Positions 33,815 to 62,898 of a stretch of 64,000 nucleotides of DNA are shown here, piece by piece (the first letter of the stretch is position 1; every line of letters starts with the position of its first letter). The translations under genes and the position numbers were made by a program. The notes beneath the pieces are model-generated. The model had not been told where the DNA came from. It saw only the letters and a program-made list of their open reading frames with translations, and ran no database searches. Source of the DNA: Sphingomonas sp. LY29 (GTDB lineage: Bacteria > Pseudomonadota > Alphaproteobacteria > Sphingomonadales > Sphingomonadaceae); contig NZ_CP141587.1 of the NCBI RefSeq assembly GCF_035593985.1, forward strand, positions 1,796,001 to 1,860,000, read 5' to 3'.

Positions 33815-34504
33815 ATGTTGATCGCCATCCCTTCGGTACTGAGCGCGGATCAGGTGCGCGAGGCGCGCGGCCTGCTCGATGCGGCGGCGTGGGAGGATGG
33901 ACGGTCGACGGCAGGCGGACAGTCCGCGCTCGCCAAGCGCAATGCCCAACTGTCGGCGGACAACGCGGCCGCGCGAACGATCGGAGCGACGATCCTGCAG
34001 GCGCTGTCGGCAAACGGACTGTTCATGTCGGCCGCCCTACCGAAGAAGATCTTTCCGCCGCTGTTCAACCGCTACGAGGCGAGCGAAGGGCATCACTTCG
34101 GCGATCATGTCGACAATGCGATCCGCTTCCTTCCGGGTGGAGAGGGGCGCGTTCGGACCGACCTGTCGGCAACGCTGTTCCTGGCGGAGCCCGACGACTA
34201 CGACGGCGGCGAACTGGTGATCGAGGACAGCTACGGGTCACACAGTGTCAAGTTGCCCGCAGGCGATATGATTCTCTACCCCGCCACCTCGCTTCATCGC
34301 GTCGAGCCGGTCACGCGAGGGGCGCGGGTCGCTTCCTTCTTCTGGATCGAATCGATGGTCCGCGACGACGGGCAGCGCACTCTGCTGCTCGACATGGATG
34401 CGGCGGTGCGGACGCTGGCGAGCGAGGTCGGGGACGATCATGCGGCAGTCGTGTCGCTGACCGGCACGTATCACAATTTGTTGAGGCGCTGGGCCGACAG
34501 CTAG
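33815..34504 (+). CDS. Fe(II)/2-oxoglutarate-dependent PKHD-type hydroxylase (PiuC/YbiX)
   Basis: A 229-residue dioxygenase of the PiuC/YbiX group. The iron ligands are His98 and Asp100 in FGDHVDN and the distal His161 in [11 protein letters not shown], with Arg168 as the likely 2-oxoglutarate anchor. The jelly-roll strands read [20 protein letters not shown] and [10 protein letters not shown]. The protein substrate is not established. Such genes regularly follow TonB siderophore receptors, as here with a 10-nt gap, which suggests a role in iron uptake. The stop overlaps the UdgX gene (convergent) by four bases. Confidence 0.9.
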
Positions 34505-35943
34505 GCGGCGAGCGCGGCGGCGCGTTCCCCGATCCGCTTGAGGTCCGACACGAAGCGGGCGCGCTCGGTGCGGCGGGCCTCCTCGTCGGGCAGGCGGAGC
34601 AGGAAGCTGGGATGCACCGTCACCCAGCATTCGCTCCCGTCCGCCAAGGTCAGCGGCTCATCGCGAACGCGGCTGATCGTCACCGTCTTTCCGGTGAGCG
34701 ACCGGGCGGCGGTGGCGCCCAGCGCGACGGTCAGTGCAGGTCGGATCAGCCCGCGCTCCTGTTCCTGCCACCAGCGGCAGGCGTCGATCTCGCCGACGTC
34801 GGGGCGCGAGTGGATCCGTTTCTTGCCCTTCAGCACGAACTTGAAATGCTTGACCGCATTGGTGACATAGGTGCGCTTCCGGTCGATCCCCGCCGCTTCG
34901 AGCGCCGCGTTGAAGACTTCACCAGCAGGGCCGACGAACGGCTTGCCTGCCAGATCCTCCTGGTCGCCCGGCTGCTCACCGACGAAGATGATCGACGCAT
35001 CGAGCGGCCCTTCGCCGAACACCGTCTGCGTGGCACATTGGTAAAGGTCGCAGCGCGTGCAATGCGCCGCCTCGTCGCGAAGCGCTTCCCAACTTGCGCG
35101 GATGTTCGATCGCGGCATCGGCTCCTGACCCCTCGACGTTTCGATCCCCGGCGCGGTGGGCGCCATCTCCAACATCGCCGCCTCGCGCTTTTGCGCGCCC
35201 GCGATCAAGTCGCCGATCAGCGCGGTCTCGGGCATGTTCTTCCAATATTTCTTGGGCATTTCCTTGGTCATCGCCTTCACCTTCACCCGCGCCGGATTGA
35301 AGATGCTCGCGTAATAGGTTTTCCACGTCTCCTCGACCGGATCGCCGTCGGGGGCCTCCGCGCGCGTAGCGCCGGGCCCTTCGGTCAGCTTCTCTCCGTC
35401 CCAGTGGATGGTGAGTTGGGGCGTCAGGATCGACCAGCGCATGTTGGCGAAGCGGCGCATGAAAAAGCCGGCCTCGCGCCGGACGATGTGATGATCGGGC
35501 TCGAACCAGGCAACGAAACGCGCGCCATCCTCCTCCTCGATTTCACGGAAGCGGACGAAGGCGTGCATCTTGTGGGCGTCGCGCCGGACTTCCTTGGCGA
35601 GCCGCTCGATCCGGTCGAGCAGCGGATCGGCGCGATCCTCCATCGCTCGGCGGTTGCTGCGAAGCTTCAGCAGTATCTCGTACAGCAGAGCGAAGCGCTC
35701 AGGATCGGAATGACAGATCGCCGCCTTGGCGACGTCGATAAACCCGCGGGGCACGGCGAAGCTGGGTCCGTCGGGCGGCGGCAGCGTGTCGGGCAAGGCC
35801 GCGAACAGGTCCGCCTCGCCCCCATTCACTTCCCAGCGGATCGCGCTTGGCGGAACGCCCGCTTCGGCAAGCCCACGGGCCGCATCACGCCATCCGGCGA
35901 AGTCGTCTTCGTCGGACAGCGAGACGCGATGCGCGTCGACCAT
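34501..35943 (-). CDS. DUF4130 - UdgX family uracil-DNA glycosylase fusion
   Basis: A 480-residue two-domain protein. Residues about 1-240 are the DUF4130 (TIGR03915) domain, which accompanies the radical SAM repair protein. Residues about 285-480 are a uracil-DNA glycosylase-like domain of the UdgX type: Cys pair CTRC (295-298), [29 protein letters not shown] and the loop KRIHSRP (375-381). In UdgX the loop His (here His378) forms a covalent bond to DNA after removing uracil. It is preceded by GAAGG 5 nt before the ATG at 35943. It is the last gene of the radical SAM-hemerythrin-UdgX operon. The 3' end overlaps the PiuC-type gene by four bases. Confidence 0.9.
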
Positions 35944-35963
35944 CGGGCCTTCGCGCAGCATGG

Positions 35964-36449
35964 TTATTCGCGGTCGTCGCCCTCGTCGGCACCGGCTTCG
36001 GCGCGCGCGACTTCCTTGGGCTTTCGCTTTTCGAACAAGGCGCGAAGCTCGACGACCTTTTCCTCGCTCAGCCCCTCGGCCGCGGTCGGAAACATCTCTT
36101 CCTCTTCCTCGTCGATGTGATGGGTGTACTCGTCTTTCAGCGTCTTGAACTTGGTCAGCCAGCCCGACGAACCCATGTCCATCTCGGCCAGCTCCTCGAG
36201 CATGTCGCCGATTTCCTTATGTTCGCTGACCGAATGCACCGCATCGTGACGCAATTCCTCACGCGCCAGCATCGTCGCATAAAGCGACTCCTCTTCGGCG
36301 GCGGCGTGCGCGGTCACTTCAATTTTGAAAGTATCGAACAGCTCGCGCCGTTCGTCGCTGTCGCCGCTGGTCTCGACGATCTTGTCGAGCAATTCGCGAT
36401 GACGGTCGTGGTCCTGCTTCAGTCGGTCGAAAATGTCGGCACTTGCCAT
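35964..36449 (-). CDS. Hemerythrin HHE domain protein
   Basis: A 161-residue four-helix protein with the hemerythrin pattern. Likely di-iron ligands are His14/His17, His48 with the acidic EEES, His72/His77 in HSVSEHKEI, and His110/His111 with the Glu run in THHIDEEEEEMFP. Hemerythrins bind or sense O2 and NO, or protect iron proteins; which of these applies is not known. The ATG at 36449 has GGAAGGAA before it; the open frame beyond it is not used. It sits between the radical SAM gene (35 nt upstream) and UdgX (20 nt downstream), all in one direction. Confidence 0.88.
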   Translation of the reverse strand: MASADIFDRLKQDHDRHRELLDKIVETSGDSDERRELFDTFKIEVTAHAAAEEESLYATMLAREELRHDAVHSVSEHKEIGDMLEELAEMDMGSSGWLTKFKTLKDEYTHHIDEEEEEMFPTAAEGLSEEKVVELRALFEKRKPKEVARAEAGADEGDDRE

Positions 36450-36484
36450 GGTCTGTTCCTTCCCTCGATCGAAGGCCCAACCGT

Positions 36485-37729
36485 TCACGCGGCGAACAGG
36501 TCCAATTGAGTCTCGCGCGGCGCAATTAATGCCTTCAGGTCGGCGCGGTCGGTCAGCAGTGTCGGGCGCCAATCCGACGTGACGATGAAGGGGCGGACTT
36601 TGGCGATCGACACTGTCAGCCGACCGACGTCGGCCAAGGTCATCGATCGCCAACGGCGTGACGATAGGATCCGACCGACCGCCTTCGTGCCTAGTCCCGG
36701 AACGCGCAGCAGCTGCTCCTTCGACGCGCGATTGACGTCGACCGGGAAGCTTTCGCGAAACTTCAGCGCCCAGGCGAGCTTCGGGTCGATGTCGAGCGGG
36801 AGCATGCCGTCGGCGCCCGCCGCGCTGACCACCTCCTTCGGCTTGAACCCGTAGAACCGCATCAGCCAGTCGGACTGGTAAAGCCGGTGCTCGCGCATCA
36901 GCGGCGGTCGCTTCAGCGGCAATACCGCGCTTGGGCTGGGGATGGGGGAGAAGGCCGAATAATAGACTCGGCGAAGCGAAAAACGATCGTAGAGCTGGCT
37001 TGCGCGCATCACAATGTCACCGTCATTGGCGGCGTCGGCCCCGACGATCATCTGCGTCGATTGGCCAGCGGGCGCGAACTTGGGTGCGGAGCGATACTTC
37101 TTCCGCGCATCCTTTCCGTCCTCGATCCCCAGCTTCATGTCCTTCATCGCGCCTTCGATCCGCGTCGCGCTCTTTTCCGGCGCGAGCCTTTCGAGCCCGC
37201 CGACGGTGGGAAGCTCGACGTTGATCGACACGCGGTCGGCATGAAGCGCGGCAAGACGGACCAATTCGGGATCGGCATCGGGGATGGTCTTCAGGTGGAT
37301 GTAACCGCGGAAATTATGATCCTCGCGCAGCGACCGCGCCACCTCGACCAATTGCTCCATCGTGTAATTGGACGACTTGATGATGCCCGAGGAGAGGAAC
37401 AGCCCCTCGATATAATTGCGCTTGTAGAAGGACAGGGTAAGGTGGACGACCTCCTGCGCGGTGAAGCGCGCGCGTCGGACGTTCGAGCTCTTGCGGTTGA
37501 TGCAATAATGGCAATCGAAGATGCAGCTGTTGGTCAGCAGGATCTTCAGCAGGGAAATGCAGCGGCCGTCGGGCGCGTAGGCGTGACAGATGCCCATCCC
37601 CTCGGTCGACCCGACCCCCTTACCGCCCCGGCTGTCTCGCTTCGACGTTCCCGACGATGCGCAACTCGCGTCATATTTCGCTGCATCGGCGAGAATCGCC
37701 AGCTTCTCACGGGTGTCCAGTTGCGCCAT
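36485..37729 (-). CDS. Putative DNA modification/repair radical SAM protein (TIGR03916)
   Basis: A 414-residue radical SAM enzyme of the TIGR03916 family, annotated as a putative DNA repair or modification protein. The 4Fe-4S/SAM motif is CIFDCHYC (Cys69, Cys73, Cys76). Earlier Cys residues and the GMGICHAYAPDGRC segment (44-57) are also family-like. The C-terminal part has helix-hairpin-helix motifs (DVNRASKEQLLRVPGLGTKA) for DNA contact. The reaction is not known. The ATG at 37729 gives the family start KLAILADAAKYDASC. It heads the operon with hemerythrin and UdgX. A LexA-type box lies 2 nt before the ATG; no clear ribosome binding site exists, so a leaderless message is possible. Confidence 0.9.
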   Translation of the reverse strand: MAQLDTREKLAILADAAKYDASCASSGTSKRDSRGGKGVGSTEGMGICHAYAPDGRCISLLKILLTNSCIFDCHYCINRKSSNVRRARFTAQEVVHLTLSFYKRNYIEGLFLSSGIIKSSNYTMEQLVEVARSLREDHNFRGYIHLKTIPDADPELVRLAALHADRVSINVELPTVGGLERLAPEKSATRIEGAMKDMKLGIEDGKDARKKYRSAPKFAPAGQSTQMIVGADAANDGDIVMRASQLYDRFSLRRVYYSAFSPIPSPSAVLPLKRPPLMREHRLYQSDWLMRFYGFKPKEVVSAAGADGMLPLDIDPKLAWALKFRESFPVDVNRASKEQLLRVPGLGTKAVGRILSSRRWRSMTLADVGRLTVSIAKVRPFIVTSDWRPTLLTDRADLKALIAPRETQLDLFAA

Positions 37730-37731
37730 CC

Positions 37732-37746
37732 GTTCTTTTTATGTTC
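37732..37746. promoter_or_regulatory. LexA (SOS) box, GTTC-N7-GTTC
   Basis: GTTC TTTTTAT GTTC exactly fits the alphaproteobacterial LexA consensus GTTC-N7-GTTC (read as GAAC-N7-GAAC in the direction of the operon). It lies 2 bases before the ATG of the radical SAM repair gene, and it is the only such match noticed at a gene start here. This pattern occurs by chance about once in a window of this size and base composition, so its position in front of a DNA-repair operon is the supporting fact. Confidence 0.75.
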
Positions 37747-37871
37747 CGGGTTGGGCGAAGTCCAGCGTTTTGAATCTCCACGACTTTCTTCGCCTCTGGT
37801 CGTTGGTCGATCTGTCGCTTGCCCTCCCGTCTACGCTGCCTACACTCGGTCGAAAATCAGGGGGAAATCAC

Positions 37872-61247: not shown

Positions 61248-61973
61248 ATGAGCAATGCAACGATCGTGGCCCGCGAAGCCGCGCACTTCGGCAGCCTGGC
61301 AAGCGATTGGTGGGACCCCGACGGCGCGTCGGCGATGCTCCACAAGCTCAACCCGGTGCGGCTGGCCTATGTCCGCGACATGGTCGACCAGCATTTCGGG
61401 CTCGACGAATGCGGCTTCCGGCCGCTTAGCGGCAAGACCGCGCTCGATGTCGGTTGCGGGGCGGGGCTGCTGGCCGAGCCGCTGGTACGGCTGGGCGCGC
61501 AGGTCACTGCGATCGACGCCGCGCCCGAACTGGTTGAGGCCGCGAAAGCGCACGCGGCGGGGCAGGGCCTGACGATCGACTATCGCGCGATGGGTGTGGA
61601 GTCGCTGACCGGCCAGTACGACCTTGTCACCGCGATGGAGGTGATCGAGCATGTCGCCGACCCGCAAGGTTTCGTGGACGCGCTGGTGGCGCGGCTTGCG
61701 CCCGGCGGGCTGCTGATCCTGTCGACCCCCAACCGGACCGCCTGGTCGCGCCTGCTGACGATCACGCTTGCCGAAGGGACGGGGCGAATCCCGAAGGGCA
61801 CGCACGACTATGACCAGTTCATCGATCCCGACGCGATGAAGGGCCTGCTGGCCAAAGCGGGCATGGCGGTCATCGACGTCGAAGGCATCGCCGTCTCGCC
61901 GATGCGCGGGCTGCATCTGAGCGACGACGTGCGGCTAAATTATCTGGTGGCGGCGAAACGGGCGACGGCCTGA
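61248..61973 (+). CDS. ubiG: Ubiquinone biosynthesis O-methyltransferase UbiG
   Basis: UbiG carries out two SAM-dependent O-methylations in ubiquinone synthesis. It has 241 residues. The start EAAHFGSLASDWWDPDG and FGPLHxLNPxRL-like KLNPVRLAYV are UbiG-specific. The SAM motif is ALDVGCGAGLLAEPLVRLGA, then VTAMEVIEHVADP and LILSTPNRT, and the late motif GTHDYDQFI is present. It is divergent from lysC. GGAGGGG lies 5 to 10 nt before the ATG. Confidence 0.94.
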   Translation: MSNATIVAREAAHFGSLASDWWDPDGASAMLHKLNPVRLAYVRDMVDQHFGLDECGFRPLSGKTALDVGCGAGLLAEPLVRLGAQVTAIDAAPELVEAAKAHAAGQGLTIDYRAMGVESLTGQYDLVTAMEVIEHVADPQGFVDALVARLAPGGLLILSTPNRTAWSRLLTITLAEGTGRIPKGTHDYDQFIDPDAMKGLLAKAGMAVIDVEGIAVSPMRGLHLSDDVRLNYLVAAKRATA

Positions 61974-62022
61974 GGAACGCGGCGCAGCAAATCGGGTAGC
62001 GGATATCCGATCGTCGCTGCGT

Positions 62023-62898
62023 CTATCCGTTGGTGCAGATGAAGAAGGAAAAGTCCGACTTTCCCTGTTCCAGCAGCAGTTGATCGATATTCATCAACGT
62101 ATTGATGAATGCCTGATGCAGGTCAGGTCGGGGCCCCAGTTCAGACAGGTTCAGGAACGGGTAAAGGGGATGCATCAGCGCCCCTCCCAGGCGTCGTTCG
62201 TCGACGTTCTTGAAGTAAATCCTCAGAAAGTCCGGGATCAACTTCGACCTGACGGCTTCCGTCGGGTCACGAAAGAAAACCTGCTCGATCGTCGGATTGG
62301 GAAAGCGCTCAATATTCTTCAGCGACGGGGGTAGACCGTCGAGCACATTCTGGAGCACGTCGATCTGATCGGGCCGGTAAATATTGTAACAGTCGCCGAC
62401 ATATTCGTTGACGATGAAGACGCCCTCATCGGTAAGGGTTCGCCTGACTTGATGAAGAAGGTGCTCGATCTCCCGCACGTGATGCAGCGATCCCGTGCAC
62501 AGGACCAGGTCATAGGTGGAATCGGCAAACTCCACCTGATTGAAGTCGCCGACGAAGAAATTGATTGTCTCGACGCCCGCTTCCCTGGCCTTGCCTTTGG
62601 CGATGTCGATGCTGGCGGATGAGAAATCGAATGCGTCGATCCGGGCGTTTGGATTGGCGTGAGCCGAGGCCAGTTCGTGGTCACCGACACCGCAGCCGAT
62701 CGACAGGATGCGTTCGAACGAGCGGCCCTGAAGATGATCGGCGAATAGCCAACTCAGCCAGTGGCCGGCGCTCTGGCCATTCGAGATGCGCTTATAGATT
62801 GCGGCCGCGATGTGAGGGTCCGACGTCCATTGACTGTCCTGAGCAGCATTGGGATTTTCTTCCCAGAAGTTTGCGCTGTCGACAGTTGGAGCGTGCAT
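62023..62898 (-). CDS. Class I SAM-dependent methyltransferase (low-GC gene)
   Basis: A 291-residue protein with a class I methyltransferase core: motif I ILSIGCGVGDHELA, acidic AFDFSSASIDIAK, GDFNQVEF and LVLCTGSLHHVREIEHLL. The substrate is unknown. The base use differs from its surroundings: a sample line (62341-62400) is 53% GC by count, while a line of ubiG (61441-61500) is 78% and of the next gene 60%. This suggests recent acquisition. It lies 77 bases after the next methyltransferase gene, on the same strand. Similar genes occur near surface polysaccharide loci, but no such genes are seen here. Confidence 0.85.
   Translation of the reverse strand: MHAPTVDSANFWEENPNAAQDSQWTSDPHIAAAIYKRISNGQSAGHWLSWLFADHLQGRSFERILSIGCGVGDHELASAHANPNARIDAFDFSSASIDIAKGKAREAGVETINFFVGDFNQVEFADSTYDLVLCTGSLHHVREIEHLLHQVRRTLTDEGVFIVNEYVGDCYNIYRPDQIDVLQNVLDGLPPSLKNIERFPNPTIEQVFFRDPTEAVRSKLIPDFLRIYFKNVDERRLGGALMHPLYPFLNLSELGPRPDLHQAFINTLMNIDQLLLEQGKSDFSFFICTNG

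What the first reader, a model, noticed from the sequence alone, without database searches (positions are those of the whole stretch)
34501..37746. SOS-type LexA box heads a radical SAM - hemerythrin - UdgX operon
GTTC-N7-GTTC, the alphaproteobacterial LexA consensus, sits 2 bases before the ATG of a TIGR03916 radical SAM protein. Downstream on the same strand are a hemerythrin gene and a DUF4130-UdgX fusion. UdgX can lock itself covalently onto uracil sites in DNA through a His in a KR-x-H loop, and KRIHSRP is present. The radical SAM enzyme has helix-hairpin-helix DNA-binding motifs but no known reaction. Together they suggest a DNA-damage-induced repair or DNA-modification module. This is the best candidate for a poorly described system in the window.
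Basis: partly seen in the sequence, partly recalled or inferred. Interest (0 to 1): 0.85.

Follow-up and report, generated by a model that had tools for sequence, protein, structure and literature searches.

The report
LexA-controlled radical SAM–DUF4130–UdgX operon
A DNA-damage (SOS) switch appears to sit directly on the promoter of a DNA-repair operon whose central enzymes have no known reaction; the switch is kept in the related operons examined, but SOS control of this kind of operon was already in print, so this is a solid new member of a known group.

Summary
The box is real, and relatives show it matters, though its letters alone do not: GTTC-N7-GTTC occurs once in the window against 1.98 expected and 60 times in the genome against 66 for the reversed control. 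Position decides. It lies within 120 bp upstream of the TIGR03916 radical SAM gene in 41 of 41 loci of the window's class (other spacings at most 2 of 41; control windows 8 of 3633) and in 80 of 80 named loci. In 17 loci of other classes it is absent; CTGT-N8-ACAG stands there in 12, with one mismatch in 3 (controls 2 and 19 of 445). Boxes also precede lexA, recA, uvrA and an imuA-like gene. A -35/-10 pattern overlapping the box predicts a leaderless transcript. The conserved module is radical SAM + DUF4130, often with UdgX; hemerythrin is a local passenger. UdgX crosslinking residues are kept in 52 of 52 UdgX-bearing rows. SOS control of COG4277-COG1573 operons was reported before (PMC8565304, passages): a new member of a known kind. 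The chemistry of the radical SAM/DUF4130 pair stays open.

The parts
37732..37746 (-). LexA box; sense GAACATAAAAAGAAC, 2 bp before the ATG
37759..37764 (-). inferred -35 element TGGACT (relatives mostly T-T-G at its first three places; the window differs at the second)
   Evidence: column counts over 127 distinct upstream segments; letters read
37736..37741 (-). inferred -10 element TAAAAA (relatives mostly TATAA), inside the LexA box, 17 bp after the -35; start point predicted at the ATG (leaderless)
   Evidence: inference
36485..37729 (-). radical SAM protein TIGR03916, 414 aa
37502..37525 (-). radical SAM motif C69-x3-C73-x2-C76; further invariant Cys 23, 48, 57 lie upstream (candidate auxiliary cluster)
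   Evidence: searches (17 sequences; 44 sequences), invariant in both
35964..36449 (-). hemerythrin HHE protein, 161 aa; lineage-specific passenger
34501..35961 (-). DUF4130-UdgX fusion, 486 aa from the first ATG
35224..35910 (-). DUF4130 / TIGR03915 match (residues 18-246)
34531..35220 (-). UdgX / TIGR03914 match (residues 248-477)
34801..34821 (-). UdgX crosslinking loop KRIHSRP (residues 381-387); H384 = H109 of M. smegmatis UdgX

Best explanation
This is a LexA-repressed SOS operon that makes a DNA-lesion processing module. Supported by comparison: LexA's box lies on the promoter, and the coupling is kept across the window's class and, with the other LexA box, in most loci seen from other classes of the phylum. 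Inferred: in undamaged cells LexA covers the -10 element and start point; RecA-driven LexA cleavage releases a transcript that starts at the ATG of the radical SAM gene and runs through DUF4130-UdgX. The UdgX domain excises uracil and stays covalently bound to the abasic site through His384, so the site is capped instead of cut. DUF4130 (unknown fold and activity, the most constant part) and the probably DNA-binding radical SAM enzyme act together on a base or sugar lesion with a 5'-deoxyadenosyl radical. Hemerythrin is an optional local passenger.
For: Box 41/41 loci of the window's class against 0/17 of other classes, other spacings at most 2/41, control windows 8/3633. In those 17, CTGT-N8-ACAG is perfect in 12 and has one mismatch in 3; control windows 2 and 19 of 445, and 0 and 2 of 41 upstream regions of the window's class. 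80/80 named loci, 31/31 family loci. A matrix from 30 relatives' boxes ranks the window's box first and uvrA second of the 60 pattern sites of this genome; an imuA-like gene and a PA0069-type radical SAM gene are sixth and seventh. Boxes also precede lexA and recA. 53 of 53 radical SAM genomes have DUF4130 over cut-off; predicted frames overlap by 1 or 4 bases in 31 of 57 and 42 of 76 loci. In the 3 genomes with DUF4130 but no radical SAM match (G343, G359, G427) a box stands 163-216 bp upstream of DUF4130. One of the two loci without either box is in the only one of 17 genomes without a LexA over cut-off. UdgX E52, Q53, R107, H109 equivalents 52/52. SOS control of COG1573-COG4277 in print: PMC8565304 (passages).
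Against: No experiment. The motif alone is not enriched in window or genome. Relatives are not independent samples, and the 80 named loci are the best 80 of 587 by similarity. L140 (G240) has a LexA, with TTAG-N6-TACTA at lexA, but neither that nor another box tested within 250 bp of its radical SAM gene. In 2 of 80 named loci (L191, L211) DUF4130 lies 28-36 kb from the radical SAM gene and has no GTTC-N7-GTTC in the 3.5 kb stretch read, so co-regulation is not universal. In L261 the box overlaps the aligned start of the gene. The recA and lexA boxes of this genome score low in the matrix (6.3 and 3.7), and ranks 4 and 5 are not known SOS genes. The -35 of the window departs from the relatives' TTG. 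Substrate and reaction of radical SAM and DUF4130 are untested.
Confidence: 0.85

Rival explanations
1. The box is a chance match in a T/A-rich leader and the operon is constitutive.
For: Pattern not enriched in window (1 against 1.98) or genome (60 against 66).
Against: Conserved place in 41/41 and 80/80 loci, specific to the spacing; the other LexA box in 15/17 loci of other classes, allowing one mismatch.
Confidence: 0.02
2. The module is simply a base-excision system for uracil or misincorporated nucleotides left by SOS polymerases, as proposed for Bacteroidetes; the radical SAM protein is an accessory.
For: Proposal in PMC8565304 (passages); UdgX residues intact; an imuA-like gene shares the box type.
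Against: 14 of 56 DUF4130 genomes have no adjacent UdgX, so uracil capture is optional; the radical SAM cluster motif is invariant in 17 and 44 sequences, which suggests chemistry; UdgX traps rather than turns over (PMC10359453, passages).
Confidence: 0.25
3. The radical SAM enzyme resolves the covalent UdgX-DNA crosslink, making UdgX reversible.
For: Shared operon; UdgX stays bound to its product (PMC10359453, passages).
Against: 13 of 53 radical SAM genomes have DUF4130 without adjacent UdgX, and 10 of 52 UdgX genomes have neither DUF4130 nor radical SAM over cut-off (hand tally, part checked).
Confidence: 0.08
4. The radical SAM enzyme modifies the DUF4130 protein rather than DNA (maturase and target).
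Against: C-terminal helix-hairpin-helix-like motif points to DNA; DUF4130 is found without the radical SAM in 3 of 56 genomes.
Confidence: 0.1

Closest known systems
COG1573-COG4277 'DNA base excision repair' operon of SOS regulons (PMC8565304, passages; the cited Verrucomicrobia and Caulobacter papers were not held)
   Same: Same two gene families (COG4277 = TIGR03916 is recalled), same operon, LexA control
   Different: Hemerythrin inserted in this lineage; box here sits on the -10 with a predicted leaderless start
UdgX of Mycobacterium smegmatis (6ail, 6l6s and others; PMC10359453, passages)
TIGR03916 / TIGR03915 / TIGR03914 families
   Same: All three models over their curated cut-offs
   Different: Nothing at family level
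SplB-type radical SAM lyases (DUF4130 was linked to 'SplB-like' enzymes in PMC3765255, passages)
   Same: Radical SAM class, SOS context
   Different: Only TIGR03916 among NCBIfam matches at E up to 0.001
Lipoyl synthase
   Same: Closest solved core fold listed, tied with HydE
   Different: Extra cysteines spaced C23-x24-C48-x8-C57; gene context is DNA repair

Membership tests
Alphaproteobacterial LexA (SOS) regulon | GTTC-N7-GTTC at the promoter, conserved in orthologues | tested here: met
Alphaproteobacterial LexA (SOS) regulon | Genome encodes LexA and RecA with boxes of their own | tested here: met
   lexA match 61748-62383 (box 62403-62417), recA match from 124859 (box 124718-124732) in G000:
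Alphaproteobacterial LexA (SOS) regulon | LexA binding and induction by DNA damage | not testable with these tools
   needs EMSA and transcript measurement
TIGR03916 radical SAM family | Model score over cut-off and C-x3-C-x2-C | tested here: met
TIGR03915 / DUF4130 | Model score over cut-off | tested here: met
UdgX | E52, Q53, R107, H109 equivalents | tested here: met
   present in the window and in all 52 UdgX-bearing rows of A3
UdgX | Covalent capture of the abasic site | not testable with these tools
   needs a crosslinking gel assay
Spore photoproduct lyase (SplB) | SPL family profile and H-donor cysteine | tested here: inconclusive
   no SPL model among the NCBIfam matches; cysteine not compared
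Lipoyl synthase | N-terminal CX4CX5C auxiliary-cluster motif (recalled) | tested here: not met
   invariant extra Cys are 23, 48, 57; no lipoyl synthase model at E up to 0.001
Known anti-phage systems | PADLOC profile match | tested here: not met
   0 matches for 3 proteins

The most novel reading that the evidence does not exclude
Radical SAM TIGR03916 and DUF4130 form an undescribed SOS repair chemistry: a two-cluster radical SAM enzyme that reverses or rewrites a DNA lesion handed over by DUF4130, with UdgX as an optional covalent cap for abasic sites, expressed from a LexA-blocked leaderless promoter.
Probability: 0.3. Interest if true: 0.8.

Novelty: new member of a known kind. Interest (0 to 1): 0.42.

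Why it matters
The module is tied to LexA in classes whose LexA proteins read different boxes, which is good evidence that cells need it during DNA damage. Yet no paper found in this library gives the reaction of the radical SAM enzyme or DUF4130, and the physiological role of UdgX is called largely unknown (PMC10359453, passages). The anatomy worked out here (DUF4130 as most constant part, UdgX optional, candidate auxiliary cluster, leaderless start) tells which deletions and assays would settle it.

Tried and rejected
Chance box: rejected on position, not on frequency. Hemerythrin as a functional partner: rejected as a general part (0 of 26 loci of the class outside the family, 0 of 17 of other classes). 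Phage or defence origin: of 138 pattern matches in viral contigs 2 encode a relative; PADLOC 0. A conserved third gene downstream in 13 standalone-DUF4130 loci: by eye none common to all; a PilU-like frame on the other strand recurs in 4. DUF4130 fold: the fusion model is good (mean pLDDT 88), but the fold lists shown were filled by UDG structures, so its fold is untested; Pfam at E up to 5 gave only DUF4130 for six proteins, apart from one weak UQCC3 match. Radical SAM: no PDB sequence match; residues 24-58, which hold two of the three extra cysteines, are modelled poorly, so an auxiliary cluster is inference; SPL is not among the 50 fold matches shown, which excludes nothing. One search used only boxes in GAAC orientation (8 of the 41 loci have the other orientation only) and dropped identical segments.

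Papers not held: PMC4951493 and PMC2238201.
Full report
Observation. The box GTTCTTTTTATGTTC is at 37732-37746 and its partner genes are as described. The window is G000:C1:1796001-1860000 of a one-contig 2.46 Mb genome; its DUF4130-UdgX protein is 99% identical to one named Sphingomonas sp. LY160, so the class is taken as Alphaproteobacteria. The pattern by itself means little: 1 in the window against 1.98 in shuffles, 60 in the genome against 66 for the reversed pattern.

Position test. TIGR03916 is over its cut-off in 100 of 149 genomes of the family sample. I looked at the best 30 of those loci plus the window's own: 31 of 31 have GAAC-N7-GAAC just upstream of the gene. In a phylum sample of 299 genomes 53 have the gene over cut-off; I read the loci of all 53 (the window included) and 5 more family members, 58 in all. 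Within 120 bp upstream the N7 repeat is in 41 of 41 loci of the window's class and 0 of 17 of other classes; spacings 3-6 and 8-12 give at most 2 of 41; 130-bp control windows in the 41 loci give 8 of 3633. Their titles are alphaproteobacterial, or no finer than Proteobacteria/Pseudomonadota. In L261 the box overlaps the aligned gene start. These sets overlap in taxa and are not independent.

Switch of boxes. In the 17 loci of other classes CTGT-N8-ACAG is perfect in 12 and has one mismatch in 3 (L157, L166, L167); L125 and L140 lack it. In 445 control windows it is perfect in 2 and has one mismatch in 19; in the 41 upstream regions of the window's class 0 and 2. Of the 17 genomes 16 have a LexA over cut-off; the one without is G221, the source of L125. 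G240 (L140) has a LexA whose gene carries TTAG-N6-TACTA, but no such site within 250 bp of the radical SAM gene: an unexplained exception.

The regulon of this genome. A matrix built from 30 relatives' boxes, without the window, scores the window's box 27.2, first of 60 genome sites. Second is a site ending 11 bp before uvrA (23.6; the frame is cut by the locus end and so below the models' cut-offs); third a site at the start of a ribonucleotide reductase alpha gene (over cut-off); sixth a site before an imuA-like frame (35 bits, cut-off 150) followed by a DNA polymerase IV-like frame (36 bits, cut-off 381); seventh a site 24 bp before a PA0069-type radical SAM gene (over cut-off). Exact sites also lie 20 bp before the lexA match and 127 bp before the recA match; these score low in the matrix (3.7 and 6.3), so it describes this promoter class rather than all LexA sites. 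Ranks four (L015, a frame without NCBIfam match) and five (L011, before a frame that looks like ribosomal protein S2 by eye) are not known SOS genes.

Promoter anatomy. In 127 distinct upstream segments aligned on the sense box, T/T/G at -18/-17/-16 (0.72, 0.45, 0.72) is followed, 17 bp after such a hexamer, by T-A-T-A-A at box positions 5-9 (0.94, 0.96, 0.71, 0.69, 0.50); the ATG is 2 bp after the box in 79 of 127. So the -10 lies inside the LexA box and the start point is predicted at the ATG. The window reads TGGACT-N17-TAAAAA-N6-ATG. Leaderless transcription is inference.

What the module is. All 53 genomes with the radical SAM gene over cut-off also have DUF4130; 56 genomes have DUF4130. 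In 41 of 56 a UdgX match follows directly; in 14 it does not; 1 (G337) is cut by a contig end (hand tally; sizes checked). Ten of 52 UdgX genomes have no DUF4130 over cut-off (hand tally). In G343, G359 and G427 one search found no radical SAM match, yet a LexA box stands 163-216 bp upstream of DUF4130. Thus DUF4130 is the constant part, the radical SAM its near-constant partner, UdgX optional. Predicted frames overlap by 1 or 4 bases in 31 of 57 loci and in 42 of the 76 named loci that hold DUF4130. Of the other 4 named loci, L200 and L202 end soon after the gene; in L191 and L211 DUF4130 is elsewhere on the same contig, 28 and 36 kb away, without a GTTC-N7-GTTC in the 3.5 kb read around it: a split operon in which only the radical SAM gene kept the box. 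Hemerythrin stands between the genes in 6 of 58 loci (all in the window's family) and 9 of 80 named loci; other open frames fill the same gap in other sphingomonads.

Literature. PMC8565304 (passages) describes the COG1573-COG4277 operon as part of the inferred SOS network of Bacteroidetes and as reported before in Verrucomicrobia and Alphaproteobacteria, citing for the latter the Caulobacter regulon paper, which was not held. That COG4277 is the TIGR03916 family is recalled. PMC3765255 (passages) calls DUF4130 a predicted mutagenesis-related enzyme associated with SplB-like radical SAM proteins and UDGs. PMC1839093 (passages) lists CC2333 among four COG1573 UDGs of Caulobacter. PMC12907096 (passages) names GTTC-N7-GTTC as the Caulobacter LexA consensus. 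Searches for UdgX with radical SAM, the family names, the COG numbers and SOS with radical SAM showed no paper on the reaction of the pair in this library.

Verdict. What I did not see stated in the passages read are the box swap in other classes of Pseudomonadota, the box before DUF4130 where the radical SAM gene is missing, and the promoter geometry. The reaction is unknown.

Noticed in passing
34501-34504: The stop codons of the DUF4130-UdgX gene (-) and of the PKHD-type Fe(II) dioxygenase gene (33815-34504, +) overlap tail to tail in the four bases CTAG.
   Followed up: no
L075 (G000:C1:1784773-1787787): A ribonucleotide reductase alpha gene in the same genome carries a high-scoring LexA box (GAACAGATATAGAAC) at its start, about 10 kb from the window.
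   Followed up: partly
L009 (G000:C1:239194-242208): A second, PA0069-type radical SAM gene also has a GTTC-N7-GTTC site 24 bp before a possible start, a likely further SOS member.
   Followed up: partly
L181, L182, L183: Genomes without any TIGR03916 match have a LexA box upstream of DUF4130, in one case (L181) with neither radical SAM nor adjacent UdgX.
   Followed up: yes
L191/L288 and L211/L287: Two named Sphingomonas genomes have the radical SAM gene with its box and DUF4130 28-36 kb away without one: a split operon.
   Followed up: yes
L140, upstream of the radical SAM gene: None of the LexA-like sites tested, but an 11-bp perfect inverted repeat (GGCGGTCTCAT / ATGAGACCGCC) between the preceding gene and the radical SAM gene; terminator or operator unknown.
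   Followed up: no
L168, L169, L192, L193, L195, L214: In some sphingomonads the gap between the radical SAM and DUF4130 genes holds other, differing open frames (not identified by profile), as if this gap were an insertion hot spot.
   Followed up: partly
L265 (IMGVR_UViG_3300006947_003566): A contig filed as viral carries the radical SAM gene with LexA box and a hemerythrin gene; prophage cargo or host contamination not resolved.
   Followed up: no
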